A DNA stretch of 64,000 bases from contig NC_067200.1 in the NCBI RefSeq assembly GCF_000699445.3, forward strand, positions 8,740,450 to 8,804,449, in the 5' to 3' direction. The notes beneath the pieces were generated by a model. It was given only the letters and a program-made list of their open reading frames with translations, made no database searches and was not told the DNA's origin. The position numbers were made by a program, and so were the translations under genes. This document shows positions 1 to 64,000 of this stretch, piece after piece (the stretch's first letter is position 1; each line of letters begins with the position of its first letter). Source of the stretch: Schistosoma haematobium. Lineage: Eukaryota; Platyhelminthes; Trematoda; Strigeidida; Schistosomatidae.

Positions 1-46
1 ATAGAAATGTTTAATAAATTAGGCAAACTAAACCATTTTTCATAGT

Positions 47-226
47 AAGCAAAGATGGGTGATGGCTAGTAGTGGAATCCAAGACATGTGTTTCTTCTTA
101 TTTGGAACTCATTAGCTGTATGTACTTGAATTTCAAAGTTGATTTTCACTCCGCAAATGGAACCTAGTACTGTTCGCTTAGAACTCTGTCACGTTATCCA
201 TTTAGCTACTGAGTCCTGATAACTCG
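47..226 (-). mobile_element. HH-A (Sm-alpha-like) copy, left half of foldback
   Basis: Diverged minus-strand copy of the tRNA-derived hammerhead element, running from its 3' part (47) to its A-box region (near 205-220). The hammerhead core is degenerate. It is joined head-to-head to the copy at 228. Confidence 0.75.
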
Positions 227-227
227 A

Positions 228-416
228 TGATGTTCGAAGCGAACGGTACGGTGTTTGAGTCTCGGAGTGAACACAAATTCTTGGTTGCAGGTACATCCAG
301 TTGACGAGTTCTAAATAGGACGAAACGCGTGTCCTAAATTCCACTGCTAGGTATTATCCATATCTGCCTATGCTTGTGAATTAAGAAAATATCAAGGCAA
401 TACGCACAGGATGCAT
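228..416 (+). mobile_element. HH-A (Sm-alpha-like) copy, right half of foldback
   Basis: Plus-strand copy that starts before the B box and keeps the hammerhead at 295-340. GAAA and GTC are present, but the first core base is mutated (TTGACGA for CTGACGA) and stem I is weakened. The tail ends near 416. Confidence 0.78.
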
Positions 417-9727: not shown

Positions 9728-10880
9728 GACTTACTTACGATTGTTACTCCTAATGGAGCATAGGCCGCCGACCAGCTTTCTTCAACCCACTCTGTCCTGG
9801 GCCTTCTTTTCTAGTTCCATCCAATTCTTGTTCATTTTTCTCATGTCTATTTCCATTTCTGGGCGTAATGTGTTCTTTGGTCTTCTCCTTTTCCATTGGC
9901 CTTCAGGATTCCATGTGAGGGCTTGTCTTGTGACACAGTTTAGTGCTTTCCTCAATGTGCGTCCTAACTAAATCCAGCGCTTCTTCCTGATTTCTTCCTC
10001 CTCCGGATCTGATTTGTCCTCTCCCACAATGGGCTGTTTCTGATAGTGAAGTGAACAGAACACGTGTGAGGACAATCGAATGTATTTAACACAAATTACA
10101 GGACTTATTAATAAACTTTAACAATCATAAACTAAATGCATAATTTGCAAAATGTCCGCTAATTGTCTCAAAATGGCTCAGACTTCATTGTTTTTGCATT
10201 TTCATACAAATTGAATTCTGTTCCCATTCTTTACTGTTCGATCCTCTTGTCTCTTTGCTTCCAGACCTTCTGTTCACGACTAACATCATATACTTTTTAT
10301 GTCAATATAAGTAACACACACCACAATAGTGTCTGGCCAGTGGATGTGAATTATTTCGCGTAGACAGCTGTTAATGAACACTTGTATCTTCTCGATGAAG
10401 ACTTTTGTTGTTCTCCAAGTTTCCGCCCCATACATCAAAACTGTCTTAACATTTGTATTGAAACGTCTTACTGAGGTATTGGCAGTTGACAGTTGTTTTG
10501 ATTTCCAGATGTTATTCAGTTGTAAATATGCTGCTCTCACTTTGCCGATCCGCGCCTTCACGTCTGCATCAGATCCACCGTGTTCATCAATGATACTGCC
10601 CAAATATATAAAGATTTTTACATCTTCCAAATCTCCTCCGTCAATTGGGATTCGATTGTTGGATGCTGTGTTGTATCGGAGAATCCTGCTTTTCCCTGTG
10701 TTTATATTGAGACCTACTGCAGTTGAGGCTGCTGCTACACTGGTCGTCTTCTCCTGCATTTGTTGTTGCGTGTGCAATAGAAGAGCCAGACCACCTGCGA
10801 GGTCTAGATCGTCCAGCTGCATCCTAGATGTCCACTGTATCCCGTGCTTCCCTTTAGATGTTGACGTCTTCATGATCCAG
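9728..10880 (-). mobile_element. SR2/RTE-like non-LTR retrotransposon 3' end, split by LTR-1
   Basis: Minus-strand pseudogene of the C-terminal part of an RTE-clade reverse transcriptase. Recognisable blocks are GIQWTSRMQLDDLD, LNINTGKSRILRYN, YLGSIIDEHGGSDADVKARI and [12 protein letters not shown], followed by the 3' end near 9728. The catalytic FADD motif is replaced by LAGG, so this copy is dead. The body is interrupted by the LTR-1 insertion at 10047-10325. Confidence 0.88.
10047..10325 (-). mobile_element. LTR-1 insertion inside SR2
   Basis: A 279-bp LTR-1 copy splits the SR2 coding remnant. Host sequence resumes cleanly on each side, with ATAG duplicated at 10043-10046 and 10326-10329. 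This fixes the element's ends as TG...CA. Confidence 0.7.
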
Positions 10881-10939
10881 TTGATATATATATGGATATA
10901 TATATAATGAAGACAGTCACTTTAGTGACAACCTCTGAT

Positions 10940-13480: not shown

Positions 13481-14286
13481 GGTTAATGAGCTTAAGAACT
13501 AAAATCAATTATTATACTATGTAAACATATTGATATCCTGAGCAAGATCATCTAAATGACGCCATTTAATTGTTTAATGGATAACATATTGAAATTTGAA
13601 GTGAAATGTACTGTGTTTCATACTTTGGATTCAACAATACATCGCTTAGCTACATAGTCTGAAACGTTAAGAATAAACTTTTCAGATAAAAACTGATATT
13701 TAGTTTAATGTTATTATTTATAGTGCAATTCCTATGTGATACAAATCACTTTGAATGGCATTTCATAATCTAATAACTAATTTGTTAAACAAACCCATTA
13801 CATTCATGTCTTAGTAGAAATGAAGAAAGATGATTTTATTGAATTCCAAGTGATTTGAATATCCTTACTTGTAACTGACAGAAAACGTTATTTTTCGTCT
13901 GTCTTTTTCCATCAAGTTGTAGTAGTTGAAGTCATATATGAAAGAGGTGTTTTTTGACTGAGTAGGAACCCAGATGATTTGAATCTACGTGAAAGTATGT
14001 TTATCGACTAAAGTGACTAGGACATGAATTACGTAATTCAAACCACAGTCAATCTAGACACTCTATGATGGTTGGTTTAGAAGTAGGCTAAAAGAAAACT
14101 GAAATTGGCCGATTAAAACCATATCAGTGAGTGAGGACATTAACCGTTGAGCTCTGCATTGTAGGAAGAGCTAGACTACTTGGTTAGTTAGACACACTGT
14201 GACACTATTCATAACCTGTCATAGTGGCTTAGACATAGATCACTATTTGTGTTACTCTAAATCCTGAGTTTTAAAATAACCTTTTT

Positions 14287-14640
14287 AATTCACTTGGTAT
14301 TGTTTGGCTTGTATCTTCCTATTGAGGTTAAAGACTGCAATTGATCAGTCTGTTATTGGCATATGTGCATACTGTGCGTATGCCTTGATATTATCTTAAT
14401 CTAAGCCAAACAAGCCAAACAATACCAAGTGAATTTAAATTCACCCCATTGCACAAGCAAGTGCTTATCAGAACTCAGTAGCTGAGTGGATAACGCGATG
14501 GGTTTGGGGTGAATGGTACTGGGTTCGAGTCCCAGAGTGAACGTCAACTCTGAGATGCAGGTACATCCAGCTGACAAGTCCCAACTAGGACGAAACGCGC
14601 ATTCTGGATTCCACTGTCAGCAACTATCCATTATCTAAGA
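14287..14640 (+). mobile_element. HH-A foldback: inverted tail plus full copy
   Basis: Bases 14287-14400 are an HH-A tail on the minus strand. It is followed by a plus-strand tail end (14405-14440) that runs in tandem into a full plus copy with A box (tagctgagtggataacg), B box (ggttcgagtcc) and hammerhead region near 14565-14608. The core reads CTGACAA and the cleavage triplet is lost, so the ribozyme is judged inactive. Confidence 0.82.
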
Positions 14641-16421: not shown

Positions 16422-17009
16422 TTAATATATAGATAGGTAACCTGCAAGATCTTAGATTTTACTATTCATTCAACGGGAGGGTGGATGGTGCATATAATTC
16501 TTACTGACGATTGCATGTTGGGTACCTCAAGTTATCCAAATCTATCTTCTATAGATGAGCCACTGTAGCATATCTCAATGGGCTTTACAAAAACACAAAT
16601 TCATCCATATATTCAGTTGAATGATTCACTCCATTCGATTAAATTTATAGGATCAACTGCCCAAAAGAATTATCCCAGTAACAGTGTAGGAAGGTATTCG
16701 AAAATTGAGAATTCTGTATATTGATTTAAGTGTAAGTTGTGAGTCGAAACTACACAGGTGAATGTAGATTGCAGTAAAGTGAAAAGAGATATTTTGATAT
16801 GCATCATAAACATACCAGTATGAATAATAAAATAATATACTAAAACAGAGTTCAATACGTGAAAATATACTAAGTCGTGCACAAATATACACAGGAATAT
16901 CAATGTACTCACTTCGATGGTACATATACTAGAATTGGAACGATACAAAGAAGATTAGCATTGCCTTTGAATAAGGATGACGCTCAAAACCGTGAGGCGT
17001 TCCATAATT

Positions 17010-17205
17010 TTACTCAATAGTCTAGATGTTAAGCGTTCACGCATGAAACTGAAGGTCATGGCTTCAGTTCCCGCGTGCGGGATCATGGATGAGCACTGCT
17101 GAGGAGTCCCATACTAGAACGAAACGGCCAGCCAGTGCCTCCAGGTTTTTGTTGCTGGTCCAGCTTTAATCGACTCATAAATTCAACCACTGAATTAAGA
17201 AGCTT
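17010..17205 (+). mobile_element. HH-B copy
   Basis: Plus copy with A box, decayed B box and hammerhead. CTGAGGA and GAAA are intact, but the cleavage triplet is AGC and stem II is weakened. It lies in the candidate last intron of gene 1. Confidence 0.72.
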
Positions 17206-19324: not shown

Positions 19325-20640
19325 CTTTTTTTCGCTTGTATATGTTGAGGATCACTGTTTCAGAGGCTGCTGATAAACTAGTTGTTTTTATCTGCATTTG
19401 TTCGTGTGTATGGGAAAGAAGAGCCAGACCATCTGTAAAGTTCAAATCGTCTAGTTGCAATCAAAATGTGCATTGTATTCCGTGCTTCCTGACAGATGTA
19501 GAGGTTTTCATAATACAGTCAATCACTAGAAGAAAGAAAAAGGGAGAGAGTAAGCAGCCTTGTCTGACTCCTGTCTTTACTTCAAATGCATCTGTCAGCT
19601 GTTCCTCACGCACGAATTTGCACAGTGATCCGTCGAAAGAGTTCCGGATTAAGTTGACAATCTTTTCAGGAACTACATAGTGTCAAAGAAGTTTCCATAA
19701 TGTTCTCCTGTCCACACTGTCAAACGACTTCGCATAGTCAATGAAATGGATGTATAGTGACGAGTTCCATTCAACTGATTGTTCAACGATGATCCGTAGT
19801 GTTGCGATTTAGCCTGCTCACGACATATCCTTACAAAATCCGACCTGTTGATCTCGAAATTGGGCGTCTACTGAGTCTATCATTCGGTTCAGCAACACTG
19901 CGGAAAACGTTTCCTGTTACTGACAGTAACGTGATGCTTGTGTAGTCCTCACATATACTCAGATCTCGTTTCTTTGGTATCTTGATGAGGTATCCTTCTT
20001 TCCAGTCCGTCAGCCCTTGTTTTTCCACACAAATCTTCTTCCTGAAAAGACTGTGGAGTATCTTTGTAGTTACTTCTATAACTGACTTCAGTGTTTCAGT
20101 GTGTATATTGTGCGGTCCTACTGCTTACCCACTCTTGATTTGTCTGATGACCGACCATTCTGATTTGTTGGATCGTTGGTCGATTGACATGTATAAGAAT
20201 GTGTGTTTTCTGCTTCGATGTCCGATGGATTGAGTAGAACTGGTCTATTTAAGAATTCCTCGACGTGTTCCACCCATTTCTTCCTCTGTCCTTGAATTTC
20301 AGTGATTGTCTTTCATTCTTTGTCCTCGAACGGACGCTCGGGCATACTATATATCCCTAGCACATTTTTCGTTTTGGCATACGGTTGTCTCCCATTTCAT
20401 TCTCTTGCAGATTGTTCCCTGTCGTTGATAGGTCTCCAACGTATCTTTGCTTGTCTGCGCTTATGTTCGTCTTTACTTGCTTATTTGCTTCTATGTATTA
20501 AGCTTGTGCCTTGATTTTCTCTCTCCTTGTTCGTCTGTTATTAACTGCTGTCTTTCTGTCTTGAATCTTGTCCAGGCTTTTCAAAGAGATCCACTCTTGC
20601 GGCCCAGCACCCTGTGGCGTATTCCAGGAAATCTATACAA
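19325..20640 (-). mobile_element. SR2/RTE-like reverse transcriptase pseudogene
   Basis: Minus-strand remnant covering N-terminal and palm parts. Visible blocks, in order on the element, are RRTRREKIKAQA, DLSTTGNN, TDWKEGYLIKIPKKRDLS, a decayed QAGF region, the F-I-D-Y palm A motif, TGVRQGC (intact) and LDDLNFTDGLAL. The catalytic FADD reads FTDG. Stops are present. Its 5' part (from 20394) forms the left arm of the large inverted repeat, and 19779-20250 is identical to 34709-35180. Confidence 0.87.
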
Positions 20641-20836
20641 GAGATAATGTTCACTCCGTGACTCCAACCCACTACCATTCGATTCATACATTTAAAGCTA
20701 TTGAATAACTTTCTAATGTCACCTTCATTCCTGTTCAGCCTGTAATACAAACCACAAATTATAAGATTTTATTATATACTTCAATCTAGATTAACTAAAA
20801 TAAATAGTTAAGTAACATTCAATTACAATCAGTTTC

Positions 20837-20890
<54 letters not shown>

Positions 20891-21427
20891 CGTGAAACTA
20901 TAAAACTCAATCCAAGTTACAAAATGATCTCACAGAATGGTACTTCATTCATGAAGTAGATCTTCACTTCACATTATCAGAATAACACAAACAAAACAGA
21001 ACAGATAGATATACTAAACATTCAATTCAATCTTCACTCTGTTCAATTGATTCATTAAAGTATCCCATATTATCTCCATTATTATTATTATTATAATCAT
21101 TATGATTATTCTATGTCTATAACATGTCTCATCTACTGGATTGAATCTCATATTGAAACAGACATCATTAATTCAGCATAATAAATTAATCATAACATTC
21201 TTGCATTGAATTATATATCCATATACAACAAATGAGATTGAATTCATTACTATTCAATTGCGTGTTCATATCAAGTGTTGAACAGAAATTGACTTCATTG
21301 AATACATTTCTATTGAATAGAATATAAATAAAATAAATGAATCATGTTTTATTGAAGAAAAAGTATCTTTGAACAAAGAATTGTGTTTTTTTTTGTGTTT
21401 TTTGCAATGTAAAAACGATTAGATTTT
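20394..21427. repeat. Left arm of near-perfect inverted repeat (about 1.03 kb)
   Basis: Reverse complement of 23588-24600. The arms match apart from an (AAT)n tract, 54 nt here and 33 nt in the right arm. The outer 250 bp is SR2 sequence; the inner part is a non-coding AT-rich unit. Similarity drops abruptly outside 20394, although both flanks remain SR2-related. Confidence 0.92.
20837..20890. repeat. (AAT)n microsatellite
   Basis: 54-nt trinucleotide run within the inverted repeat. The mirror copy is at 24125-24157 with seven fewer units. Confidence 0.97.
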
Positions 21428-21495
21428 TGTAATAGAAACGACACTGAATGCGTGTTCTGGATCCAATTGATAGTCATAATCCAACAATATTGAAT

Positions 21496-21735
21496 GAAAA
21501 CCTGGAAGCACTGTATGGCTGTTTCGTCCTCTTGTGAGACTTCTCAGAATTGCACATGCACGAACCCGCCTAGAGAGAGATTCGAACCCAGAACTGTTGA
21601 AGAGTTTCACAATAAGCAGGTAAGGGCCATCCAGTGCTTTCATATTTTGCATGGTGGTCTAGCTTCATTTGACTCATGACCGTAGCCATTGAAATTACTA
21701 TAATATCCACGAAAACCCTTCTAATATTTAATGGA
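21496..21735. mobile_element. HH-B foldback
   Basis: Minus-strand HH-B fragment (21496-21595, hammerhead to B box) joined head-to-head to a plus-strand fragment (21596-21735, hammerhead to tail). It sits in the spacer of the inverted repeat. Confidence 0.75.
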
Positions 21736-22122
21736 AACACGGTATTAATCCATTTTCTCATATTTTACGTATATAAACACGAATGGGACGTTCATTCACC
21801 TTAGGTGAATATCTACGCTAGATACCCTTCCAGTGTCCATTCTACAGGACTTCAACACAAATAATATCAAAAACACGTGACTAGCTTGACTTGAACGTAA
21901 CTATATTTCCACATCAAAAGCAGACAACACTCCTAACACTAATAATAATCGTAGGAGAACATATAATAAATCTAAAACCTGTTACATTATCTACACATCT
22001 GACTAAGCAAACAATGAAGCATTATCTTCCTTGCCCACACATCAATCTTATACATTTTTTATACATTTTCATTTTAAGAAAATTATAAACAAGTATGTCA
22101 TAACGTTCTGTGATGGTACCAA

Positions 22123-22398
22123 TGTAGTGAGCTACAACACAAGTGGGGACAATCATATGTATTAGAATACAAAATTACAAAACATCTTATTAAAATCTGA
22201 GAACTATACAGTAAATACTTCGTTTGCAAAATATCAATCAATCGTCTCAGATTTCATTGTTCCTTTGTTTCCTTACCAATCATTTTCTGTTCTCGTTCTC
22301 TTTTCTCCGATCTTCTTAACCTTCTGCCGCTAGGCATTTCAATTTCGATTGATCATACATACTACTGATATCTGTCGATATCAGTAGCACACACCACA
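22123..22398 (-). mobile_element. LTR-1 copy
   Basis: About 276 bp, from TGTAGTGAGC to CACACCACA, on the minus strand. No flanking duplication seen. Confidence 0.5.
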
Positions 22399-22559
22399 CC
22401 ACATCAATATCCATGGTATTTTCGATATCTTTCATTAATTTTTGAGTAAGTAGTTTCTTCAAATTCATATCTACATTAGACAGAAACATCTATCAATCCA
22501 TTAAAGTGCATGGCTAAGTATAAGTGGTTACAATAAAACCAGGATCACGAAATCAACGA

Positions 22560-22910
22560 ACAGATACTGGGATAATACAAAACGGTGATTCATTCATTTA
22601 TTAGATCCTTACTTTACATTATCAGAAGAACAAAACAAAAGAGACAGATAGATTATACATTCAATTCAATCTTGACTTTGTAGAAGAATAATAATAATAA
22701 ACACTAAGATGAAATTGAAAACAGATTCCTTCAATTATTCTATATATTCAATTCTATTTACTTGCGTGTTCACATCTAGTGTTCAACAGAAATTTACTCA
22801 ATTGAGTATATTTCTATTGAACAGAATAAAAAAAGTAAATCGAGTCATGTTTTTCTTTCTTTTTCTGAGAAGTTCAGTCAAATAGTTTCTTTGAATAAAG
22901 AAATTCTTTA
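22560..22910. repeat. Diverged third copy of the inverted-repeat unit
   Basis: Matches 20940-21390 in the same orientation but is clearly diverged and partly deleted. Shared blocks include cattcaattcaatcttgac and atttctattgaa. It shows the arms contain an older dispersed repeat. Confidence 0.65.
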
Positions 22911-23089
22911 TAAACAGTGAAGTTATGCAATAGTTTCTTAACATTTAATATTACACTATTCTCATTATTGAAGATCGTAAATTGTTAGTTACTGTTTATA
23001 TACGTAAAATATAAGTAAATGTATTATTACTGTATTTTAATGAAATGTTGTTGGGTTATGACAATCAATTGGATCCAAAACACGCATTC

Positions 23090-23577
23090 ATTATGTGTTT
23101 TGGTACGGCCGAGAGTGTGCATAGTCAGCTCTCTCTCTCGGAATGTTCTCAAATGGCCACGTGTATACAACCAGAAAAATCCTACTCACTGCCGTTCTCA
23201 TGACGCGGTTATCGTTTATGAAATTAAGAGGACGAAAAGCGAATGTCCGGTGCTTTAACCGGGTTAGTACATACGGAGAATCAACCTAGGGGAGTTGGAA
23301 AACCTTGATTCCAAACCAATGGCATACATGGGCTCCATGATCCAAAAGTAGTTAATGGCATATGAGCCTGCTGTTGGTCACCTGCTACCAATGCACTGCA
23401 TCATTTTATGCTGCTCCATATCTTGTGGATTAGACCTTTAGGTCGAAGGCTCAGGATGTGGCCCTTTAAGAAAGCCAACTGTTTCGGTTTGGGCACACAG
23501 GCAGTATCCTAGCTCATATCTGTTTGGTGCTTCCTTGTACCAATGTTTATGTGTTTAAATAAATAAATAGAGTGTTG
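23090..23577 (+). mobile_element. RT-D retroposon with (AAAT)n tail
   Basis: A repeat of about 0.5 kb beginning near the cggccgagag motif and ending in ttaaataaataaat. Three other copies: 25166-25955 (+), 28357-28880 (-) and 38345-38850 (-). The A-rich tail implies retroposition. No A/B boxes recognised, so it may be the 3' end of a non-LTR element. Confidence 0.6.
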
Positions 23578-23587
23578 TTATTAACTC

Positions 23588-24124
23588 AAAATCTAATCGT
23601 TTTTACATTGCAAAAAACACAAAAAAAAACACAATTCTTTGTTCAAAGATACTTTTTCTTCAATAAAACATGATTCATTTATTTTATTTATATTCTATTC
23701 AATAGAAATGTATTCAATGAAGTCAATTTCTGTTCAACACTTGATATGAACACGCAATTGAATAGTAATGAATTCAATCTCATTTGTTGTATATGGATAT
23801 ATAATTCAATGCAAGAATGTTATGATTAATTTATTATGCTGAATTAATGATGTCTGTTTCAATATGAGATTCAATCCAGTAGATGAGACATGTTATAGAC
23901 ATAGAATAATCATAATGATTATAATAATAATAATAATGGAGATAATATGGGATACTTTAATGAATCAATTGAACAGAGTGAAGATTGAATTGAATGTTTA
24001 GTATATCTATCTGTTCTGTTTTGTTTGTGTTATTCTGATAATGTGAAGTGAAGATCTACTTCATGAATGAAGTACCATTCTGTGAGATCATTTTGTAACT
24101 TGGATTGAGTTTTATAGTTTCACG

Positions 24125-24157
<33 letters not shown>

Positions 24158-24600
24158 GAAACTGATTGTAATTGAATGTTACTTAACTATTTATTTTAGT
24201 TAATCTAGATTGAAGTATATAATAAAATCTTATAATTTGTGGTTTGTATTACAGGCTGAACAGGAATGAAGGTGACATTAGAAAGTTATTCAATAGCTTT
24301 AAATGTATGAATCGAATGGTAGTGGGTTGGAGTCACGGAGTGAACATTATCTCTTGTATAGATTTCCTGGAATACGCCACAGGGTGCTGGGCCGCAAGAG
24401 TGGATCTCTTTGAAAAGCCTGGACAAGATTCAAGACAGAAAGACAGCAGTTAATAACAGACGAACAAGGAGAGAGAAAATCAAGGCACAAGCTTAATACA
24501 TAGAAGCAAATAAGCAAGTAAAGACGAACATAAGCGCAGACAAGCAAAGATACGTTGGAGACCTATCAACGACAGGGAACAATCTGCAAGAGAATGAAAT
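23588..24600. repeat. Right arm of near-perfect inverted repeat
   Basis: Reverse complement of 20394-21427, separated from it by a 2.16-kb spacer. The 69-codon frame at 24244-24453 is identical to the one at 20750-20541. Confidence 0.92.
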
Positions 24601-24630
24601 ATGAGACAACCATATGACACAATGAAAAGG
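24370..24630 (+). mobile_element. SR2/RTE-like fragment
   Basis: Plus-strand piece of the SR2 ORF, mostly the outer part of the right arm. It runs about 20-30 bp past the arm with diverged sequence before meeting HH-A. Confidence 0.7.
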
Positions 24631-27214: not shown

Positions 27215-27430
27215 GTTAACTGATTGTCCAGTAGGTTAAGCGTTCGCACGCGAGACTGAAGGCCCTGGGTTCGAACCCCGTGAGCGGGATCCTGGATGTG
27301 CACTGTTGAAGAGTCCCACAATAGGACGAAAACGGCCTTTTAGTGCTTCCAGGTTTTCAATGATGGTCAAACATCAATCGGTTCATGATCTCAATCAAAA
27401 CTTTAACAATCTCCACAACCCCTAAACTGA
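27215..27430 (+). mobile_element. HH-B copy
   Basis: A box, B box (ggttcgaacccc), hammerhead and tail (aacccctaaactgat). The core box is TTGAAGA and the cleavage triplet is lost. Confidence 0.76.
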
Positions 27431-27964
27431 TGTTAATTAAATGTTATAAACCATAAAACAATAATATGTTGCAACATTATGTCAATCCTTAAAAATATAT
27501 AGGACTGATCATTAGTCAATTAACAAGAGGTAAGATAATGTCTAAATACTTTAATAGTAACATACATGACTGTCATACTTGAGAATGTATATTTAAACTT
27601 CATACACAGGGTAATAGCTCAAATATAAGTGTTCATTAATGTTCTATCAATGATCCATGATTTGTTTTTGACTCATGTATATATTCTATTCATCTTCTTA
27701 TTTCTTTCATATTTGATTAATACAAGAGCTGATTAATTTTGATTATTACATCTATACAAGATAATACAAATCATCTGATATATAAACATATGGTATTAGA
27801 ATTATTACTGATGTTTTGTTTATTTATATATTTCTCATGTTTTCCAATGAAATATCATATGATCTTCTCAATTAATACAATCTTAATTGTGAAATGTTTA
27901 CTCTTCAATCAATCAGTAATTTGAGTATATTCTATTCAATAAAATGCTGATAAGTAGTTAAGCT
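27431..27964. other. AT-rich non-coding stretch
   Basis: Nothing recognised. The hydrophobic frame at 27739-27924 is low complexity. Confidence 0.4.
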
Positions 27965-28352
27965 AAGATGGATAGTGGGTAGCAGTGGAATCTAGGATGC
28001 GCGTCTCGTCCTATTTAGGACTTGTCAGCTGAATGTACCTTCATCTCAGAGTTGATGTTCATTCTGGGACTCGAAACCAGTACTGTCCGCTTCAAACGCA
28101 ATCACGTTATCCACTTAGCTAATGAGTCCTGATAGCCACCTGCTTGTGCAATGAGGTGGAGTTTATATTCACTTGGTGTTGTTTCACTTGAATCTTACCA
28201 CTGAAGTATAGGACTGCAATTGATCAGCTTTTGGCTTAAGGCTATATCGAGGTAATCCGCACAGCATGTACATATGCCAACATGAAACTGATCAATTGCA
28301 GTCCTAAACATCAATGGGAAGATTCAAGTGAACAAAACCAAGTGAATATCTT
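27965..28352 (-). mobile_element. HH-A foldback
   Basis: Minus copy (27965-28165) followed in tandem by a second minus tail (28166-28230), then a plus-strand tail (28237-28352). The two tails form a near-perfect palindrome around 28235. Hammerhead core mutated (CTGACAA, GAGA). Confidence 0.8.
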
Positions 28353-28880: not shown

Positions 28881-29117
28881 TGACTTATCTTACACAGATT
28901 GTTTTCTTTGTGGTATGAGCTAAAAATTCTGTATAAGTTTTGTTTGTATGTTAAAACACAAAGATTTATTGAAGCATTTCATGAAGATATTTTTTATATA
29001 ATGAGCTAACTTTCATCATATATAAATATCTATGTTATTGACGTGAGAAACAATACCAAATGTGAGTTATTAGTTTGTAATTTCAGTTTTTTAAAAGTGC
29101 TGAAAGATTTAAACAAT

Positions 29118-29330
29118 CCAGATTCAATGGTTAAGATCATGAGTCAGTTGAAGCTAGTCCACCATGGGAAACCCGGAAGCACTGGACGGCCGTTTCGTTC
29201 TATTGTGGGGCTCTTCAACAGTGCTTCCAGGTTTCCCATGGTGGTCTAACTTCAACTGACTCGTGATCTTAACCATTGAAATTACTACAGTCTCCACAAA
29301 ACCCATCTGATATTAATCCAGATTCAGTTA
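29118..29330. mobile_element. HH-B foldback centred on the hammerhead
   Basis: Minus HH-B 3' half (29118-29218) joined to plus 3' half (29219-29330). Arms of about 90 bp match closely, and the loop is the hammerhead core (mutated to TTGAAGA). The plus half begins with CAGTGC, the first base after the predicted ribozyme cleavage site. Confidence 0.82.
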
Positions 29331-31515: not shown

Positions 31516-32334
31516 ACCACTGATTCCTTTCCACAAAACCAATTCCTAGGATGTTTTTCTGACTATTTCTATAGTACTTTCAATAAAATAAGTAGTATAA
31601 GTCCAAACTTTAAGAACAAATATTTAGATGAACGACATAGTGACACGTTTTAAAAGATTTATACAATGGAAATGAAACATTTTCCTATTAGAATTAGTAA
31701 GCTTAAAAATAACTAACAATTTCAATCAAGCAGCTTTAGTAAAGTAATGAAACTTGGATTAATGAATGTTGAAATTTGACAATCGTTCATCTATTCTCTA
31801 TTTACTTCATAGAATGTACGGGTACTTTATTATCTTTCAAAAAATCGATTGAACATAAAGCTTGATCGAAGACATTCAAAATGTGTTGTGAGAAAGATAC
31901 CATTAGGTCAATAAAGTTAATGAACAATATCCATAAATCGTTTTTAATCATGACAGTTATATACACACTAGTACTGAATATAAACAGATAGTTCCAGCAG
32001 TTCTAATAACTAAGGTATCATCAGTGGGGTACATCTATATCGAATATGAAACAATTATCTTTGAATAACATCTAGAAAAGTAGTTGTGTGTTATTGTAAA
32101 TTGATTGAGTTCTAATGTGTAAACGATTGTCAACTCATTCTAAATGTGTTTGACATATAAACTACAATGAACCATAAGTACAGTATATTCATCACAATTG
32201 ATTGATCACTGGGTGGTGATCAATGTCATGCTTGTCTAGTCCTTATTAGTGTAGATCGAATGCTATCGATCATGTTGCAATGTGGCCACCAGTCTAGGTG
32301 ACTCGACACTGCGGGCACTATGTATTGAGATTTA

Positions 32335-32575
32335 GATGGTGGTTTGAGGTAGTCGACAGGAAACCCTGGACCTGGGTTTCGTGCTACTTGGCACTCGTCA
32401 GCAAGGTGTACCTGTAATCTTGAGGGAACTGGTGCTCCCTGGCGGATTCGATCTCGTGTTACCCAGCTTCACAGTCAGAGACGTTACCACTGAGCTATCC
32501 GAGACGTGACTAACCTCACAAAGCCGCACGAAACCCGGGTCCAGGGTTTCTTGTTGACTACCTCCAACCACCATC
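32335..32575 (-). mobile_element. HH-C copy, foldback
   Basis: Best HH-C copy. On the minus strand: A-box-like TAGCTCAGTGG (32498-32488), B-box-like ATCGAATCC (32452-32444), then the hammerhead. After the A-box end, a plus-strand copy of the hammerhead 3' half follows (32522-32575), so the locus is a head-to-head foldback. Confidence 0.78.
32364..32406 (-). ncRNA. Intact type I hammerhead ribozyme of HH-C
   Basis: On the minus strand: stem I strand CCTTG, core CTGACGA (32401-32395), stem II GTGC/GCAC with a 6-nt loop, GAAA (32380-32377), a short stem III, GTC (32371-32369) and CAGGG closing stem I with one G-U pair. All conserved core bases are present. Self-cleavage is predicted, not shown. 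Confidence 0.75.
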
Positions 32576-32579
32576 TAAA

Positions 32580-33580
32580 TCACAGTATATTCATATTTAG
32601 TCATTGAATTCATTTTAAAAAAATGTGTATTCTTGTTAACAGTTGACTGATTTATAAGTTATATTTGGTTGTATTGTATATTCTTTTATCCATATTCTTT
32701 TATCAATTACCATTTGGCTTTTCTTTAAAAGAAAAGGAGATTCATTATATATCATTTCAATTCATGCACGCAATATTCTTCATTACATCGCTTATTTAAT
32801 ATATTCATGCGTATAAATGGGTGTAATGTTTTGTTTAACTTTTATTATAAGAGTGATCTATCAGGTATTGAATGATGGTTCATATCATTTATTCAATGAT
32901 TTTGACTTTTTAGTGGCTTGGATTTGCAATATTGATGTAAAAACTGTTCAATTATATGGATGAAAATCATTCATCTTTTGGCATCATTGTCCCTCAGTTT
33001 ACTTTCAATAGAGCCTTAGGCATTCATTTCAGTAACAGTCGTCAGTGATCTGTATATATGAACACATGAACTGATTGAAAATCTCTATCATATTAATGTA
33101 CCAGTGTATAAATGAAGAACATTCTTTTCATGAACATGAAAATGTAAATGCCAGAACTTCGACTAATATAATTTGCTTCACAAGAGAAGTTGAATTGATA
33201 CATACAAAACGAGGTAACGATTCTAGATAGTTTATTCTTTAGCTTAAGTCTCATCAGTAGACACGTAAAAAACACTATTCATGGTTTTTCTGTATTAAAT
33301 ATACTTTGGATTAGTATTCTACTGGTTGCATCAGCTCTAAATTATAACCGAATGAACAGGAATTCGTTATTCATTGTTCACCTATTCTAACCTTTGGGAT
33401 TACATATATACTTGTTTTCTCTAAAAATTATTAAGCAAGGCAGTTAGTTTTTCTTTTATTATATCAATGGAACATTTGGTACATATTCAATAACTATGTA
33501 TATGAATCCATATTACAGGGTATATTTAAAGAAGGAACATACCAACATCACATCATTCATGATCTACTTATTACTTGTTT
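32580..33580. other. AT-rich non-coding stretch
   Basis: No gene or recognised repeat. Confidence 0.4.
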
Positions 33581-35289: not shown

Positions 35290-35680
35290 TTCAAAAAATA
35301 TATTTTACCCCAGAATCACGCATGGAAAAACAAGATTTTGAATAATAAAATTTACAGGTGAATTAATAATATTTTATCCTTCTGATTAGAAGATAAACAA
35401 CAACAACAACAATAACAATAAACTGTATTCATTTCTATTAATAAGATTAAACTTATAGTTACAATTAAGTCTTAATATTGTAAACAAATAATGCTTAATG
35501 AAGTAGAAATAGTCAAAATAAAATGCTTCATTGAAAGAAAATAAGCGTTAACAGTTATGTTATTTAGATGTAATAAGCGTTAACAATATTCATGATTCAT
35601 TTTTATGTTTACTGTTAACTAAACTTCCATTATTGAACACGAAAAAACAAAGTGAATCAATGTGAAATAAACAAAATAAT
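35290..35680. other. AT-rich non-coding stretch
   Basis: Contains a short CAA run near 35398; otherwise nothing recognised. Confidence 0.4.
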
Positions 35681-35682
35681 TC

Positions 35683-36145
35683 ACTTGGTATTGTTTGTTT
35701 AAATCTTTCTATTGACGTGTTGGGACTGCGTTTCATCAATTTCTTATTGGCATATGTGCATACTGTGTGTATTGACTCAATATAGCTTTAATTCACAAGC
35801 ATTCTGAGCAAAGATAGATAGTGGTTAGCAGTGGAGTTCAGAACGCGCCTGTTGTTATATTCGAAACTTATCAGACTGATCAATTGTAGTCCTTAAACGT
35901 CAGTGGGAAAATTCAAGGGAAACAACACCAAGTGAGTATAAACTTCACCCCATTGCACAAGCAGGTGGCTATCAGGATACAGTAACTAAGTGGATAACGT
36001 GATGGCGTTTGAAGCGACGGTACTGGTTTCGAGTCCTAGAATGAACATCAACTCTGAGATGCAGGTGCATTCAGCTGACGAGTCCCAAATAGGATGAAAC
36101 GCGTCCTTTGTTTCACTGCTACTCACTATCCGTCTTTGCACATAA
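35683..36145 (+). mobile_element. HH-A foldback with tandem
   Basis: Minus copy tail to hammerhead (35683-35875), then a plus tail (35876-35935) running in tandem into a plus copy with A box, B box and hammerhead (36074-36117). The core CTGACGA and GAAA are intact, but stem I and the base before GAAA are altered. Confidence 0.82.
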
Positions 36146-36271
36146 ACTAAATAATTGTTATACTAAGACTATGTTGTCGTTTCTAATCCTAAATGTTTGT
36201 CGATAATTTTATTTATCATTATAGGGTAGTGCAATACCTTGTATTAGATTTAAATGTATCTTTTGGATCCT

Positions 36272-39859: not shown

Positions 39860-40005
39860 TTTTTGTGGAGACCATAGTAATTTAATTAGTTGAATTCATA
39901 AGTCGATTAAAGCTCAACCACCATGGAGAACCTAGAATCACTAGACTAGCTTCAAGAGATATTTCCTAGAGTTCTAGTGAAAAGCCGTAACCAGAAGCGT
40001 TCAAC
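39860..40005. mobile_element. HH-B foldback fragment
   Basis: Minus tail (39860-39942) joined to a plus-strand upstream-domain piece (agttctagtgaaaagccg, 39943-40005). Confidence 0.6.
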
Positions 40006-46245: not shown

Positions 46246-46579
46246 ACATCAAAATTATCGAATATAAATAGGTATATGGTTCTCCAGTTAACTGTATACT
46301 GAATAGGTCATCCAACCAATGTTAGCAATGTTTATAGTAGGTATTCACATTTTTGTGTACACGCTGAGATTCTACAAATACATTCTTCCTCTTTAATGTC
46401 ACACATCAACTCGGCGCCCAAATACTGTAAAACTATTCAGTCAAATTTAGACGAAAGTTCTTATTTGGAATAGCTTAATGTTCATTTCACTACGTTGAAT
46501 GAAAATAAATCCCATTTTAAAACCCTGAATACATATCTATATATATGCATATTAGGCCTAACTACTATGTTTGACATTA

Positions 46580-47035
46580 ATTATCGTAATTTCAATGATT
46601 GAGATCGCAAATCGATTGAAGCTAGACCACAATGGTAAACCTAAAAGCACTGGACGGCCGATTCATCCCATTGTGGGACTCCTCAGCAGTGCACATCCAC
46701 GATCCCGCCCGAGGGATTCGAACCCACGATCTATCAGTCTCACGCGCGAGAGCTTAACCTCTAGACAACTGAGCTGACCTTCGTCCAACGGTGTTAATGT
46801 CTAACTTCAACTAATTCACCATTGTCATCAATGAGTTCCTATCTCACAACTAAACCCGTTGAACTCCACTTGTCACTGCTTCTCACTAGAACTCCAAGGT
46901 ATACATCTTGGAGTCAGTCATTAGTGAACATATATTGATTAGGATCAAAAGGGGTTTTGTGAAGATTGTAATAATTTAAATAGTTGAGGTCATGGTGATC
47001 TAGCTTCAATTGAAATTACTACAATCTTCACAAAA
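46580..47035 (-). mobile_element. HH-B full unit, tandem tail and foldback
   Basis: Minus copy covering the whole unit (46580-46955) followed by the tail of a second minus unit (46955-46995) and an inverted plus tail (46996-47035). The hammerhead has CTGAGGA and GTC, but GAAA reads GAAT. Confidence 0.8.
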
Positions 47036-48029
47036 TCCCTTCTTATATTAATTTTCATACTCAATCTTATTGTCTGCAACTTTCTTTCCCTTTTTCTAAC
47101 CCCTATTCATATCATATTACTTGATCACCCATCTCTGGACATTCTATATAATGAAAATGGAATTAATACAAATCTATTTTCATAAATGAACAAACTATCA
47201 AAGATTTATAAAAGATTTCAGAAACAATACACAAAGGCCTTAATGAATCTAATTTCTTACCATACAACAACAAACAATACAAACTGTGCACAATTATAAA
47301 AAAAAAAGAAAAATGATTAACTTTCTTTTATTGCTATCATCAATATACAAAGCTTAACATTTGACATTCTTATTGAAGTATATCAAGCTATGAATCTCTG
47401 CGTGTGTATGTTTATGCGTGTATGTATGTATGTATGTATGTATGTATGTATGTATGTGTGTGTGTGTATAATCGAAATATTGACCATCAACAAAATTTAT
47501 CAATAATAGATTTCTTATTGATTTTAGTGTAACTCAATTAGAACTGATGAATAGTCTCAGTGTAAACAATCGTTTGTCTGTATAGATAATTAAATATATA
47601 AATATATATGTTGTTCCCAATTGAAGGAAAATATGAAATCAATCTAATCAGGATTCATTCAATTATTGATTAATGAAATTCTGGAATAATATTGATTTTA
47701 AATATAATTCATTGTTAATAAGGATGATGATGATAATGATGACAATATAATCACTGATTATAGTAATAATAATAATAATAATATACCTGAAAGCCATATT
47801 AGTTACTTAAAAGAACATGTTGCTTTTGTTTAGATCCAGGAATAATTGTCCATTTGTATAATATAAATACAAATTAGAGATGATTAATTTTCTGTTACAT
47901 TGTCATCAGTTTTATTATATTCTTCAGGTTGCTAAAATGATTGAAATGATTGAAATAGAAAATATGGAATTGAATGAATATACACATTGAAACACTATAC
48001 ATGTTAATTAACAAACATAGATGAATCAG
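47036..48029. other. AT-rich stretch with microsatellites
   Basis: Contains (GTAT)n at 47418-47467 and short AAT and TGA runs near 47725-47785. No exon identified. Confidence 0.4.
47418..47467. repeat. (GTAT)n/(GT)n microsatellite
   Basis: Tetranucleotide run passing into GT. Confidence 0.95.
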
Positions 48030-48450
48030 AGATGAATGTTGAGTAACAGTGGAATGTAAGATATGAAGTCGTTTCAGGTGAGTCCCAAAGTGGACATCAA
48101 TTCTGAGATGCAGTTATGCCCGGTTGGTGAGTCTCAAATAGAATGAAATATGTATGTCATCGGTTACACTGTTAGCCATCATTCATTTCTACTTAGAATG
48201 GTTATGAGTTAAGACAATATCCTGGTAATCTTCATTAAATGTTCTTAAGCAAATCAGAGACTAATCAATTATAGTCTTAAACTCCGCCTGGAGTCCCTCC
48301 CGGGGCTACTGCCGGTCTCAAGCCCGGATGAAGGAGGAGGGTTGGGCATGGGGTTAACGAACCCATCCCGTAGAAAACTAACTCGCTAAAAAAACGTTAA
48401 CCAGGAAGATTTTAACAACCAGTACAAATGAATTCAACTGTCTTAATGTT
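48030..48450 (+). mobile_element. HH-A copy, diverged, with nested insertion
   Basis: Plus copy from box B region to its tail. It is interrupted at 48283 by the GC-rich element and resumes at about 48403 (gaagattttaacaa ... aaatgaatt). Confidence 0.65.
48283..48402 (+). mobile_element. Short GC-rich element (about 120 bp)
   Basis: GC-rich block starting actccgcctgg, with ctcaagcccggatgaagga in the middle and ending cgctaaaaaaacgttaacc, embedded in HH-A sequence. Both ends match the ends of the 545-bp element at 61222-61766 (-). Its middle resembles 5' leader sequence of RTE-type elements. Confidence 0.55.
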
Positions 48451-48539
48451 AAACAATATTGAACGATAATTGAAATTAGGAAAAATTGGTTAAACAATTG
48501 TAAACTGTTTTAAATTAATGAATAATAAATATTTTAATA

Positions 48540-48755
48540 GTTCAGTTTATGAGTCGATTAAAGCTAGATCATCATGGAAAATCTGTAAACAATGAACGGT
48601 TAATTCGTCCTAGTACAGGACTCCTTAGCAGTGCGCATCTACGATCCTGTTCTCAGGAATCCATTGCTTCCAGGTTTTCCATAGTGGTCTAGCTTTAATC
48701 AACTCATCAATTCAACTATTAAAATGACTACAATCTTCAAAAAACCTCCCAAATA
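48540..48755. mobile_element. HH-B foldback
   Basis: Minus 3' half (48540-48655) joined to plus 3' half (48662-48755). The plus half again starts at the predicted cleavage position (CATTGCTTCC for CAGTGCTTCC). Confidence 0.78.
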
Positions 48756-49985: not shown

Positions 49986-50263
49986 CACACGAATTGCCCT
50001 AAATTACACCGTTCATAAATCAACAGGCTGTCCATTTAAGAAATATTAAAAATTCCCGGCTGATGCATTGGATCGCTGTAATATATGTACTACTTAAACA
50101 ACTACTGAACTAGTATACTTAAAACTTTCTTTTGTCACATGTTTGTTCTGCACGTCTAACGTTATTATTTATATCAAATTGATCATGCCTGTAAACTGGC
50201 GTGAATTCTGTAATTATTATTATTTTTCAGAATATAAAATTATTACTAGTGAGCAGATGATTA

Positions 50264-50582
50264 TTATCAGAAGGGGTTTTGTGGAGATTTTAGAAATTTC
50301 ACTGATTGAAATCATGAGTCAATTGAAGCTAGACGAAGACAAAATTATAATGGAACAACTTGACTTCTGGACATTAACACAGTTGGATGATGGCCGGCTC
50401 GGTGGTCTAGTTGGTTAAGCGTCTGGCGTGAGACTGATAGTCCTGGGTTCGAATCTCGCAAGGCAGGTTTCTGGATGCGCACTGCTGAGGAGTTCCATAC
50501 TAGGAGAAAACGGGGTCCAGTGTTCCCAGGTTTTCCATGGTGGTCTAGCTTCAATTGACTCATGATTTCAATCGGTGAAATA
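50264..50582. mobile_element. HH-B foldback
   Basis: Minus tail (50264-50333), a short spacer, then a plus copy with A box, B box (gggttcgaatctc) and hammerhead (CTGAGGA and GTCCAGTG kept, stem II to GAAA damaged) through to the tail. Confidence 0.78.
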
Positions 50583-55017: not shown

Positions 55018-55250
55018 TCGGTTCCACGATCTCGCATGAGAGGTTTGAAACCAGTAGCTTTGGTCTCACGCGCAAATGCTTAACCTAGGTTCGAATTCTG
55101 TGAGCCGGATCATGGATGCTCACTACTGAGGAGTTTCATACTAGAACGTAACAGCCGTCCAGTGCTTCCAGGTTTTCAATGATGGTCTAACATCAATCTT
55201 TTCATGATCTCAATCAAAAACTTAACGACCTCCACAACCCCTATACTAAT
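55018..55250. mobile_element. HH-B foldback
   Basis: Minus tRNA-like piece (55018-55084) joined to a plus copy from its B box to tail (55085-55250). GAAA reads GTAA. Confidence 0.74.
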
Positions 55251-55649
55251 AATTACCATGTGCTCACTAGTGAGTAGCTCCGTGAGAAAATTCTCGAAGT
55301 TCTGGTGAGAAGCGGTGACCAGCGGAGCTAGTCCGTGTTGGGTAGAAACAGGTGTCTACCTCAGTACAATGGAAGATGGTCGTGCAATTTCGCGGATTGG
55401 TTGAGGTCAGACTTTAATACTATTCCATGTCGGCTCAGTGGTCCAGTAGGTTAAGCGTTTGCGCACGAGATAGAAGGCCCTGGGTTCGAATCCTACAAGC
55501 GGGATCGTGGACGCACACTACTGAGGAGTCCCACAATAGGACGAAACGGCCGTCCGGTGTTTCCAGGTTTTCAATGGTGGTCTAACATCAATCGGTCCAT
55601 GATCTCAATCGAAAACTTAACAATCTCCACAACCCCTAAACTGATAATT
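55251..55649 (+). mobile_element. HH-B full unit, tandem to the previous copy
   Basis: Complete unit in the same orientation as, and directly abutting, the copy ending at 55250. The tail motif aacccctanactnataatt recurs at 55237 and 55631, a period of 394 bp. Confidence 0.82.
55515..55560 (+). ncRNA. Type I hammerhead ribozyme of HH-B
   Basis: CTGAGGA (55521-55527), stem II GTCC/GGAC, GAAA (55543-55546), GTC (55552-55554). Stem I pairs over five positions with one mismatch next to the core. Core intact; activity untested. Confidence 0.65.
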
Positions 55650-59521: not shown

Positions 59522-59791
59522 ACTATCAAAAAGTATCGTCAATCGTATTCAGAGTTAATAAAAAGCAATTTAATTATAGTAATTTAATAATTGAATTCAT
59601 GAGTCCATTGAAGCTAGACTATCATGTAAAACCTAGAAGCACTGGACCGCCGTTTCATCCTAATATAGGACTCCTCAACAGTACACATCCACGAAGCCGC
59701 TTCGCAAGACTCGAACCCAAAACCTATCAGTCTCATGAGTAAACGCTTAACCTTTAAACGACTGAGCTAGCTGTCATCCAACTATGTTAAT

Positions 59792-60050
59792 TCACTTGAT
59801 ATTGTTTTACTTGAATCTTCCCATTGATGTTTTAGGACTGAAATTGATCAGTCTCTTATTGGCTTATGTGCATACTGTGCGTATGCCTCGATGTTGCCTT
59901 AATTTACAAGCATTATAAGCAACGATGGATTGTGGCTAGCAGTGGAATCCAGGACACGCGTTTCGTCCTGTTTGGGACTCGTCAGCTGGATGTACCTGCA
60001 TCTCAGAGTTGATGTTCACTCTGGGACTCGAACTCAGTACCGTTCGCTAA
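59792..60050 (-). mobile_element. Young HH-A insertion with target duplication
   Basis: 259-bp HH-A copy on the minus strand, 5' truncated near its B box, its 3' end (ccaagtga) at 59792. GTTAAT is duplicated at 59786-59791 and 60051-60056, and the HH-B host continues on each side. It is the best-preserved HH-A in the window. Confidence 0.86.
59947..59991 (-). ncRNA. Intact type I hammerhead ribozyme of HH-A
   Basis: On the minus strand: stem I ATCCAG/CTGGAT (six perfect pairs), CTGACGA, stem II GTCC/GGAC, GAAA, a minimal stem III and GTC cleavage triplet. Matches the ribozyme known from schistosome Sm-alpha repeats. Confidence 0.88.
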
Positions 60051-60221
60051 GTTAATGTCTAACTTCAACCAATTATAGTTAAACTTCATTAATTTCATAT
60101 TAAGTAAATAGAATACAGTCAATGTAAAATCTAAGTAAATGTACTTTTGAAAAAAATCCAAGACAAAAAAACAAAAAAAACAAACAAACAATAATGATCA
60201 TTAAATATAATTAAAATTTAC

Positions 60222-61221: not shown

Positions 61222-61766
61222 GGTTAGCGTTATCTTTTTTCGGCGAGTTAATTATCTACGGGATGAGATCGTTAGCTCCATTTCCAAATGCTAGATTTGA
61301 AGCTATCACGAGTTTACTTAATCGGCGAACGAGAAACAAGACTCGGTGACCGAAGACTAGTAAGCTAGCTATTGATGCGTCCCAGCCCATCTAACTAGAG
61401 GAAGAAGTCCAAGCTTGGAATGGGAAGTATACTCTGCAAAACAGCCAGAAACGAGCGATAACAACAAACACAATTCAAAACGTATATATACAGTGCAAGA
61501 CAGTTCTTGGGGAGTTACCAAATAGCATACTAAAAGACGCAACGGACCAATAGCATCTAAGATATTTCCCAGTGGGAAATATGACATGAAGGTGATAAGA
61601 GCGCCTTCGGCGCAAAAACAAAGATATTCAAATATTCTAAATAAATTAAAAAATTAAGTCCTTTCCCAAGTGAGTTCTGGGGGGTCTAACGTCCCCAACA
61701 CCGAACCCCTCCCTTTATCCGGGCTTGAGACTGACAGTAACCTCAGAGAGGCTCGAGGTGGAGTTA
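61222..61766 (-). mobile_element. Long GC-rich element (about 545 bp)
   Basis: On the minus strand it starts taactccacctcgag, contains ctcaagcccggataaaggga, a gcgcc-ttc-ggcgc hairpin (about 61600), a 72-codon frame (61587-61369) and ends aactcgccgaaaaaagataa. Both ends match the 120-bp element at 48283-48402; the middle of about 400 bp is absent there. The encoded frame has no recognised family. Confidence 0.5.
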
Positions 61767-61769
61767 AAA

Positions 61770-63529: not shown

Positions 63530-63945
63530 TTAGCGAAACTCAGGATGCGCGTTTATTTCTATTTAGGATTCGTCAGCCGGGTGAACCTGCATGTTAGAGT
63601 TGGTTTTCAATCTTGGACTCGAACCTAACTGAATCAGTGGCTATCAGGACTTAGGAGCTAAGTGGATAACGCAATGGCGTTTGAAGTGAACGGTATTGAG
63701 TTCGAGTCTCAGATTGAACATCAATTTTGAGATACAGGTACATCCAGCTGACGCGTCCCAAATAGGACGAAACGTGCATCCTGTATCCCACTGCTAGCCA
63801 CTATCCATCTTTGAATATAATACTTGTGAATTGAGGTAATATCGAGGTAGTCCGAACACGATGCATATATGCCAATAAGAGACTGGTCGATTGCAGTCGT
63901 AAGTATCAATGAGAAGATTCAAGCAACTGACACCAAGTGAATTAA
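63530..63945. mobile_element. HH-A foldback
   Basis: Minus fragment (63530-63629, hammerhead to B box) joined to a full plus copy (63630-63945) ending ccaagtgaatt. The plus hammerhead has CTGACGC and an ATC triplet; the minus one has lost GAAA. Confidence 0.82.
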
Positions 63946-64000
63946 ATAATACCATTAATTTATGTCTGCGTTATCTTGGAAGTTAACTGAATTTCAAAAT

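What the first reader, a model, noticed from the sequence alone, without database searches (positions are those of the whole stretch)
29118..29330. Head-to-head foldbacks are the rule in all three hammerhead families, always with 3' ends outward
At least 13 loci (HH-A: 47, 14287, 27965, 35683, 63530; HH-B: 21496, 29118, 39860, 46580, 48540, 50264, 55018; HH-C: 32335) consist of a minus-strand fragment on the left joined to a plus-strand fragment on the right. I found no directly abutting tail-to-tail pair. Random insertion would give both kinds. A shared replication step, such as twin priming on multimeric RNA or snap-back cDNA synthesis, would give this polarity.
Basis: partly seen in the sequence, partly recalled or inferred. 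Interest (0 to 1): 0.86.

Follow-up and report, generated by a model that had tools for sequence, protein, structure and literature searches.

The report
Head-to-head ribozyme SINEs, two-sided insertion
In a blood-fluke genome, short jumping elements that carry a self-cutting ribozyme often lie as mirror-image pairs, and the DNA scars suggest that such a pair enters in one event with copying started from both edges of the cut, which hints at the enzyme family that moves them.

Summary
All 13 listed loci are minus-left/plus-right pairs of one hammerhead-SINE family. With one further clear and one weak locus there are 15 head-to-head and 0 tail-to-tail pairs within 40 nt. Inner junctions differ at every locus: recurrent events, not one inherited palindrome.

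Whole foldbacks are flanked by direct repeats at five loci (12/12 at 29115/29315, 13/13, 14/15, 9/9, 10/11; permutation 10 of 50000, or 162 of 50000 without the 13/13 locus). Halves show no excess of their own. For 21496 a diverged partner arm shows the empty site. The other ten loci lack convincing repeats.

Snap-back is disfavoured: the shorter arm lies within the longer in only 4 of 15. Best reading: both nicked strands prime cDNA on SINE RNA. 3' ends cluster at two places downstream of the ribozyme; 8 of 15 foldbacks pair one of each, none pairs two alike, but the statistics are weak (p 0.03-0.10 without family C). Penelope-like elements often insert like this in print (PMC3846280, PMC11167929), so they are the candidate enzyme; that step is inferred. 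Genome-wide counting was not possible.

The parts
29115..29326 (.). foldback B2 with both copies of its 12-bp target duplication AATCCAGATTCA (29115-29126, 29315-29326)
29123..29224 (-). B2 minus arm: hammerhead plus 3' tail to +62 (short 3' end, E1); its last 4 nt (TTCA on the plus strand) also belong to the target copy
29179..29224 (-). type I hammerhead in B2 (Rfam RF00163, 39.2 bits); the stem I strand GCACTG overlaps the first 6 nt of the plus arm
29219..29314 (+). B2 plus arm: begins at the hammerhead cleavage position (+1); its end is set by eye at the start of the target copy (long 3' end, E2), as the aligner ran on into it (+105)
32180..32594 (.). foldback C1 with 13-bp target duplication ACAGTATATTCAT (32180-32192, 32582-32594); minus arm left, plus arm from 32521
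35667..36156 (.). foldback A4 with 15-bp duplication, 1 mismatch (35667-35681, 36142-36156); minus arm to E2, plus arm crossing from one unit into the next and ending at E1
21486..21733 (.). foldback B1 with 11-bp duplication, 1 mismatch (21486-21496, 21723-21733)
22993..23090 (-). empty site of B1 in the other arm of a large inverted repeat: no insert and no second target copy
46576..47053 (.). foldback B4 with short candidate duplication ATTAATT (46576-46582, 47047-47053), not significant on its own
41..415 (.). foldback A1 (minus 41-221, plus 218-415); no target duplication found
14284..14631 (.). foldback A2 (minus arm to E2, plus arm crossing into the next unit and ending at E1); no convincing target duplication
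27959..28349 (.). foldback A3 (minus arm crosses units and ends at E1; plus arm ends at E2); no target duplication found
63532..63947 (.). foldback A5 (minus 63532-63625, plus 63636-63947); no target duplication found
39861..40002 (.). foldback B3 (minus 39861-39946, plus 39938-40002); no target duplication found
48531..48747 (.). foldback B5 (minus 48531-48661, plus 48660-48747); no significant target duplication
50245..50581 (.). foldback B6 (minus 50245-50334, plus 50370-50581); no target duplication found
55023..55649 (.). foldback B7 (minus 55023-55086, plus 55084-55649 spanning two units); no significant target duplication
48004..48281 (.). weak foldback A6 (minus 48004-48062, E 9e-4; plus 48080-48281); no target duplication found

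Best explanation
Each foldback is most likely one retrotransposition event made by two-sided target-primed reverse transcription. SHOWN in this window: three hammerhead-SINE families lie repeatedly as minus-left/plus-right pairs with different inner junctions; one direct repeat surrounds the whole pair at five loci; one locus has a visible empty site; outer ends of the two arms are unequal, with two recurrent 3' ends counted from the ribozyme cleavage site (A about +28 to +42 and +163 to +172; B about +58 to +73 and +83 to +99); several arms cross from one unit into the next. INFERRED: an endonuclease cuts both target strands some 9-15 bp apart at an AT-rich site; each freed 3' end primes antisense cDNA on SINE RNA, so both RNA 3' ends must face outward; the two cDNA 3' ends are then joined. 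INFERRED, about even odds: the enzyme is that of a Penelope-like element, whose protein is reported to cut and extend both strands and to start at two adjacent internal RNA sites (PMC11167929).
For: 15 head-to-head and 0 tail-to-tail within 40 nt, 15 of 15 same family. Whole-foldback direct repeats: 10 of 50000 permutations of left and right flanks reach the observed sum, 162 of 50000 without C1; halves show no such excess. Single-copy empty site for B1. Containment needed by snap-back fails in 11 of 15. Arms of one foldback share derived bases 1.8 (A) and 2.1 (B) times as often as arms of different loci (0.111 v 0.063, 0.176 v 0.085; 12 of the 13 A/B foldbacks, B3 having too few shared positions; A4 and B7 show no excess). 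Unlike 3' ends in 8 of 15 foldbacks, like ends in 0 (classes; p 0.022 with C; 0.033 without C). Five duplications plus the B4 candidate are 84% AT against 66% in the window, p 0.001. Print: in Adineta Penelope elements inverted repeats are most often head-to-head, with 8-10-bp duplications and a 31-bp tail optional on one inverted repeat (PMC3846280 passages); the Anolis protein extends both strands from two internal starts (PMC11167929, parts 1-2 of 4 read); schistosomes carry a Penelope-like element, Perere-10 (PMC8293314, PMC4465651 passages).
Against: No convincing duplication at 10 of 15 loci (A1, A2, A3, A5, A6, B3, B6, B7; B4 and B5 weak). Without both C1 and B2 the permutation weakens to 1851 of 50000. 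Overlap at inner junctions is not above a simulated null (p 0.36), so joining by microhomology is not shown. The unlike-ends result is weak: classes were drawn after looking, the C classes come from the two C foldbacks themselves, and with aligner-only ends p is 0.10. The A start sites lie about 125 nt apart, not adjacent. 13 of 15 foldbacks have arms sharing 29-158 unit positions, whereas classical twin priming copies mostly separate parts of one RNA; two RNAs or two units of a multimer are needed. In the Anolis paper starts did not differ between strands, were not homologous to the target, and ribozyme mutants inserted normally. In the Adineta paper one family has mostly direct repeats and some inverted inserts lack a duplication. 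No Penelope coding sequence was seen, but only 10 of 17 ORFs of 110 aa or more were scanned.
Confidence: 0.75

Rival explanations
1. Snap-back: a single cDNA, primed at one target end, folds on its own 3' end (for instance through hammerhead stem I) and copies itself, making the second arm.
For: In B2 the two arms overlap by exactly the stem I hexamer GCACTG/CAGTGC. Self-priming was proposed for Penelope foldbacks, there on an antisense template (PMC3846280 passages).
Against: The second arm can only repeat what the first holds; with 10 nt tolerance this is so in 4 of 15 (A5, A6, B7, C1) and fails in 11 (A1 fails by only 23 nt, and C coordinates were set by eye). In B2 the plus arm has about 32 nt of tail missing from the minus arm, and the minus arm has ribozyme sequence missing from the plus arm. 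Junction overlap is not above null.
Confidence: 0.12
2. LINE-driven twin priming: an ordinary non-LTR enzyme makes 5' inversions on SINE RNA, as L1 does on its own RNA, with no Penelope involvement. (A sub-case of the two-cDNA reading, so its odds overlap with those of the best explanation.)
For: Same logic of two target-primed cDNAs and one flanking duplication; a fragment of a reverse-transcriptase-type protein (DUF6451; many relatives carry the RT domain PF00078) lies in the window. A2, A3 and C2 could be two segments lying side by side on one RNA (E1 end and start of the other arm about 4-37 nt apart).
Against: 5' inversion is common in human L1 (18-31%) but nearly absent in the SINE Alu (1 of 5936 in PMC12016303; 1 of 5554 in PMC2912911; passages), against 15 of about 44 loci here. 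Junction microhomology, frequent in inverted L1, is not above null here. These are human figures and need not hold in flukes.
Confidence: 0.35
3. Two independent insertions side by side, or later inversion/recombination between copies.
For: Nested insertion does occur here: an A copy sits inside a B copy at 59573-60073 with ATTAAC on both sides. Single half-repeats of 7-8 nt exist at A1, A2, A6 and B6, loci without a whole-foldback repeat.
Against: 15 of 15 pairs are same-family and same polarity; half-repeats are not above shuffled pairings; the B1 empty site lacks both halves and the second target copy.
Confidence: 0.05

Closest known systems
Penelope-like elements (inverted pseudo-LTR arrangement; Anolis PAc biochemistry)
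   Same: Frequent head-to-head polarity, small duplication around the whole insert, long/short 3' ends with the extra tail on one side, partial tandems, hammerhead, AT-rich targets (PMC3846280 passages, PMC11167929 parts 1-2).
   Different: The elements here are short and non-coding with tRNA-like 5' parts; E1-E2 spacing is roughly 20-35 nt in B but about 125 nt in A; two-sided priming is inferred from scars, not assayed.
Metazoan non-LTR retrozymes
   Same: 300-400-nt units, one type I hammerhead each, low GC, multimeric copies; the authors suggest Penelope-like elements as movers (PMC7229834 passages).
   Different: A word search of that paper's main text gave 0 for 'inverted', 'head' and 'orientation'; circular RNA could not be tested here.
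Smalpha/Sjalpha hammerhead SINEs of schistosomes
   Same: Family A has the unit length (333 nt) and hammerhead that I recall for Smalpha; Rfam type I matches. The resemblance to Smalpha is recalled, not tested.
   Different: No description of systematic head-to-head insertion was seen in the passages read; the 1998 paper on schistosome hammerheads is not held.
L1 twin priming (5' inversions)
   Same: Two cDNAs of opposite strands, one target duplication, one arm at the RNA 3' end and the other primed internally (PMC2912911, PMC12016303 passages).
   Different: Arms share 29-158 unit positions in 13 of 15, 3' ends recur at two places, junction microhomology is not above null, and such inversions are almost unknown in Alu.

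Membership tests
Penelope-like element (autonomous) | ORF with telomerase-like RT and GIY-YIG endonuclease | tested here: not met
   Units are only 333 and 394 nt; 10 of the 17 window ORFs of 110 aa or more scanned with Pfam, 1 hit, DUF6451
Penelope-type insertion structure | head-to-head inverted repeats inside one target duplication | tested here: met
   Polarity at 15 loci, duplication at 5 of them
Penelope-type insertion structure | two adjacent RT start sites giving a 30-40-nt optional tail | tested here: inconclusive
   Two recurrent 3' ends in A and B; spacing fits in B, not in A; C has too few copies
Penelope-type insertion structure | preference for AT-rich targets | tested here: met
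   Five duplications plus one candidate 84% AT v 66%, p 0.001; few loci
Metazoan retrozyme | type I hammerhead in a few-hundred-nt tandem/multimeric unit | tested here: met
   (for example two units in 55084-55649)
Metazoan retrozyme | expression as circular RNA | not testable with these tools
   no RNA data
tRNA-derived SINE | Pol III A and B boxes upstream of the ribozyme | tested here: inconclusive
   Box-like motifs read by eye (box consensus recalled); ARAGORN found no tRNA
L1-type twin priming | microhomology at the inversion junction | tested here: not met
   13 A/B junctions v 296 simulated, p 0.36; old copies, so power is limited
L1-type twin priming | two cDNAs inside one target duplication, one arm primed at the RNA 3' end | tested here: inconclusive
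   Duplication at 5 of 15; exactly one arm ends at E2 in 12 of 15, p 0.048 with C and 0.072 without

The most novel reading that the evidence does not exclude
The mobilising enzyme works as a two-headed (dimeric) Penelope-type complex: it cuts both strands, and each head starts cDNA at its own site on the SINE RNA, one at E1 and one at E2, so that the insert is by design two cDNAs joined head to head; ribozyme cleavage would set the 5' run-off point of some cDNAs. Foldbacks would then be the normal product and simple copies the reduced one. This would identify the mover of animal hammerhead retroelements. (Lowered from 0.30 to 0.25 on checking: the unlike-ends statistic weakens without family C and with aligner-only ends, and the Anolis paper saw no strand difference in starts.)
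Probability: 0.25. Interest if true: 0.82.

Novelty: new variant of a known kind. Interest (0 to 1): 0.62.

Why it matters
How hammerhead-carrying animal retroelements move is open: PMC7229834 names Penelope-like elements as candidates, without insertion-scar evidence in the passages I read, and PMC11167929 leaves the later steps of Penelope insertion to be validated. Short foldbacks in three SINE families show both cDNA ends, both recurrent ends and the join in about 150-630 bp, so snap-back, twin priming and dimer models can be told apart by counting in any chromosome-level schistosome assembly. The rate here (15 of about 44 loci) contrasts with 1 of 5936 germline Alu insertions (PMC12016303 passage).

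Tried and rejected
Family-wide inherited palindrome: rejected, because inner junctions differ at every locus. Stem I-mediated snap-back, my first model from B2: rejected after seeing that each arm holds sequence missing from the other. Microhomology joining: overlaps of up to 12 nt looked striking, but 296 simulated junctions give a similar distribution. AC-rich stem-loop at the B 3' ends: a fold is predicted but is no better than shuffles, and copies give almost no two-sided changes, so no claim is made. An E1 end of B at +54 in the BLAST table was partly an artefact of mixing two tail subfamilies; ends were re-measured with two consensuses. Arm identity alone does not separate the models. 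Searches of viral contigs for two SINE patterns gave 0. A U6-B chimera showed no clear target duplication by eye.

Full report
WHAT THE WINDOW IS. The window is from a Schistosoma genome: an ORF at 10289-10921 (-) is 99% identical over 84% of its length to a S. mattheei protein (best 120 of 1978 matches listed). The species is not settled. Rfam finds 16 type I hammerheads at gathering score and more below it. They belong to three short families, A, B and C. Unit consensuses built from window copies are 333 nt (A) and 394 nt (B); C was represented by its longest copy. Position +1 is the first base after the ribozyme cleavage site. Upstream of the ribozyme lie tRNA-like boxes, read by eye; ARAGORN reports no tRNA.

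THE OBSERVATION. Among 60 segments, kept from 77 rows (16 dropped, mostly matches of one family on copies of a related one; two merged), neighbours within 40 nt are 15 head-to-head, 0 tail-to-tail and 1 direct, and 15 of 15 pairs are same-family. With wider limits a few tail-to-tail neighbours appear (1 within 100 nt, 2 within 250, 6 within 500 against 17 head-to-head; same call). Merging neighbours within 40 nt gives about 44 loci, so about a third are foldbacks; this total includes weak segments and two made by a duplication. The reversed window gives no segments. Other repeats in the masked window (E 1e-6, low complexity filtered) form no abutting inverted arms apart from one 44-nt palindrome.

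ONE EVENT PER FOLDBACK. Flanking direct repeats are 13/13 (C1), 12/12 (B2), 14/15 (A4), 9/9 (C2) and 10/11 (B1), with a 7-bp candidate at B4. Against re-pairings of left and right flanks the summed score is reached in 10 of 50000; without C1, whose tail end is uncertain and whose left boundary I set after seeing the repeat, in 162 of 50000; without C1 and B2 in 1851 of 50000. The other ten loci show nothing convincing. Repeats between an outer flank and the inner junction reach 7-8 nt at A1, A2, A6 and B6, but as a set are not above shuffled pairings (10411 and 17166 of 50000). B1 lies in one arm of a large inverted repeat (20366-21427 and 23588-24628 are 97% identical; 56- and 57-nt blocks touching B1 match 23035-23090 and 22993-23049 at 88% and 82%). 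The partner arm aligns without a gap to the joined flanks of B1 with one target copy. Only B1 of 15 has such a partner in the window.

TWO SETS OF 3' ENDS. Re-measured ends: A at +28 to +42 in 6 of 19 segments and +163 to +172 in 7 of 19; B at +58 to +73 in 9 of 28 and +83 to +99 in 13 of 28, three of the 13 assigned by eye where the aligner ran on (29219, 46991) or stopped early (45503). Class limits were drawn after seeing the data, and the C classes rest on the two C foldbacks themselves. Of 15 foldbacks, 8 pair an E1 with an E2 arm, 4 have E2 plus another end, 2 have E1 plus another end, 1 neither, and none has two alike. Shuffling arms within families gives p 0.022 (no like pair), 0.031 (8 unlike) and 0.048 (exactly one E2 in 12); without C 0.033, 0.047 and 0.072; with aligner-only ends for A and B 0.097, 0.25 and 0.27. 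The pattern is suggestive, not established. Three A segments end at +8 to +12 and are unexplained.

WHY NOT SNAP-BACK. A self-copied second arm must be contained in the first. Allowing 10 nt and any unit shift, this is so in 4 of 15 (A5, A6, B7, C1; C coordinates were set by eye). In B2 the minus arm holds ribozyme sequence absent from the plus arm, and the plus arm holds tail absent from the minus arm. Two primed cDNAs are the simplest answer. Arms of one foldback share derived bases 1.8 and 2.1 times as often as arms of different loci in A and B (12 foldbacks; A4 and B7 show none of this), so the templates were often the same or sister RNAs. Several arms cross from tail into the next unit (A2, A3, A4, B4) or span two ribozyme units (B7), so multimeric RNA is used.

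RIBOZYME LINK. 4 of 47 A/B segments begin within 3 nt of the cleavage site (B2, B3, B5, A6), uniform p 0.008; with limits -4 to +6 also 4, p 0.04. All four are at foldback junctions, where in three of the four some bases can belong to either arm, so this is suggestive only. Against it, the Anolis paper saw normal insertion with ribozyme mutants and no reads ending at the cleavage site.

MECHANISM AND RELATIVES. Two-sided target-primed reverse transcription explains polarity, single duplication, unequal ends and divergent junctions. Human L1 does this in 18-31% of insertions but Alu almost never (passages). Adineta Penelope elements often show it: most inverted arrangements are head-to-head, with 8-10-bp duplications and a 31-bp tail optional on one inverted repeat, and self-priming was proposed; one family there has mostly direct repeats, and some inverted inserts have no duplication (passages). 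The Anolis element protein cuts and extends both strands, starting at two internal sites that define the tail (parts 1-2 of 4 read). PMC7229834 already names Penelope-like elements as likely movers of animal retrozymes (passages). The A start sites are too far apart for the 'adjacent' description, no Penelope gene was seen in the ORFs scanned, and no biochemistry was done, so the enzyme stays an inference.

PRINT CHECK. Searches listed, by title and start of abstract, no paper that reports head-to-head insertion as the rule for hammerhead SINEs or retrozymes; most subscription papers, and the 1998 schistosome hammerhead paper, are not held.

LIMITS. One 64-kb window; families and classes were defined on the same data that are tested; the genome could not be searched.

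Noticed in passing
16905-17194: A full-length U6 snRNA match is followed after 1 nt by a B SINE starting inside its tRNA-like part: a U6-SINE chimera like those made by template switching.
   Followed up: partly
20366-24628: Large inverted repeat, arms 97% identical over 1062 nt with about 2.2 kb between them; it carries inverted A fragments (20640, 24305) and the empty site of B1.
   Followed up: partly
48275-48345 (+) and 61703-61770 (-): Twister-P1-like ribozyme matches below Rfam's gathering score (61.0 and 31.3 bits); the first abuts the right arm of A6.
   Followed up: no
59573-60073: An A copy sits inside a B copy with ATTAAC on both sides: a nested insertion.
   Followed up: partly
37210, 42722, 63532: Three A segments end at +8 to +12, just after ribozyme stem I: a possible third 3' end.
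   Followed up: no
29179-29224 (-) and 27300-27346 (+): Both hammerheads have TTGA in place of the CTGA of the catalytic core (core recalled) and may be poorly active.
   Followed up: no
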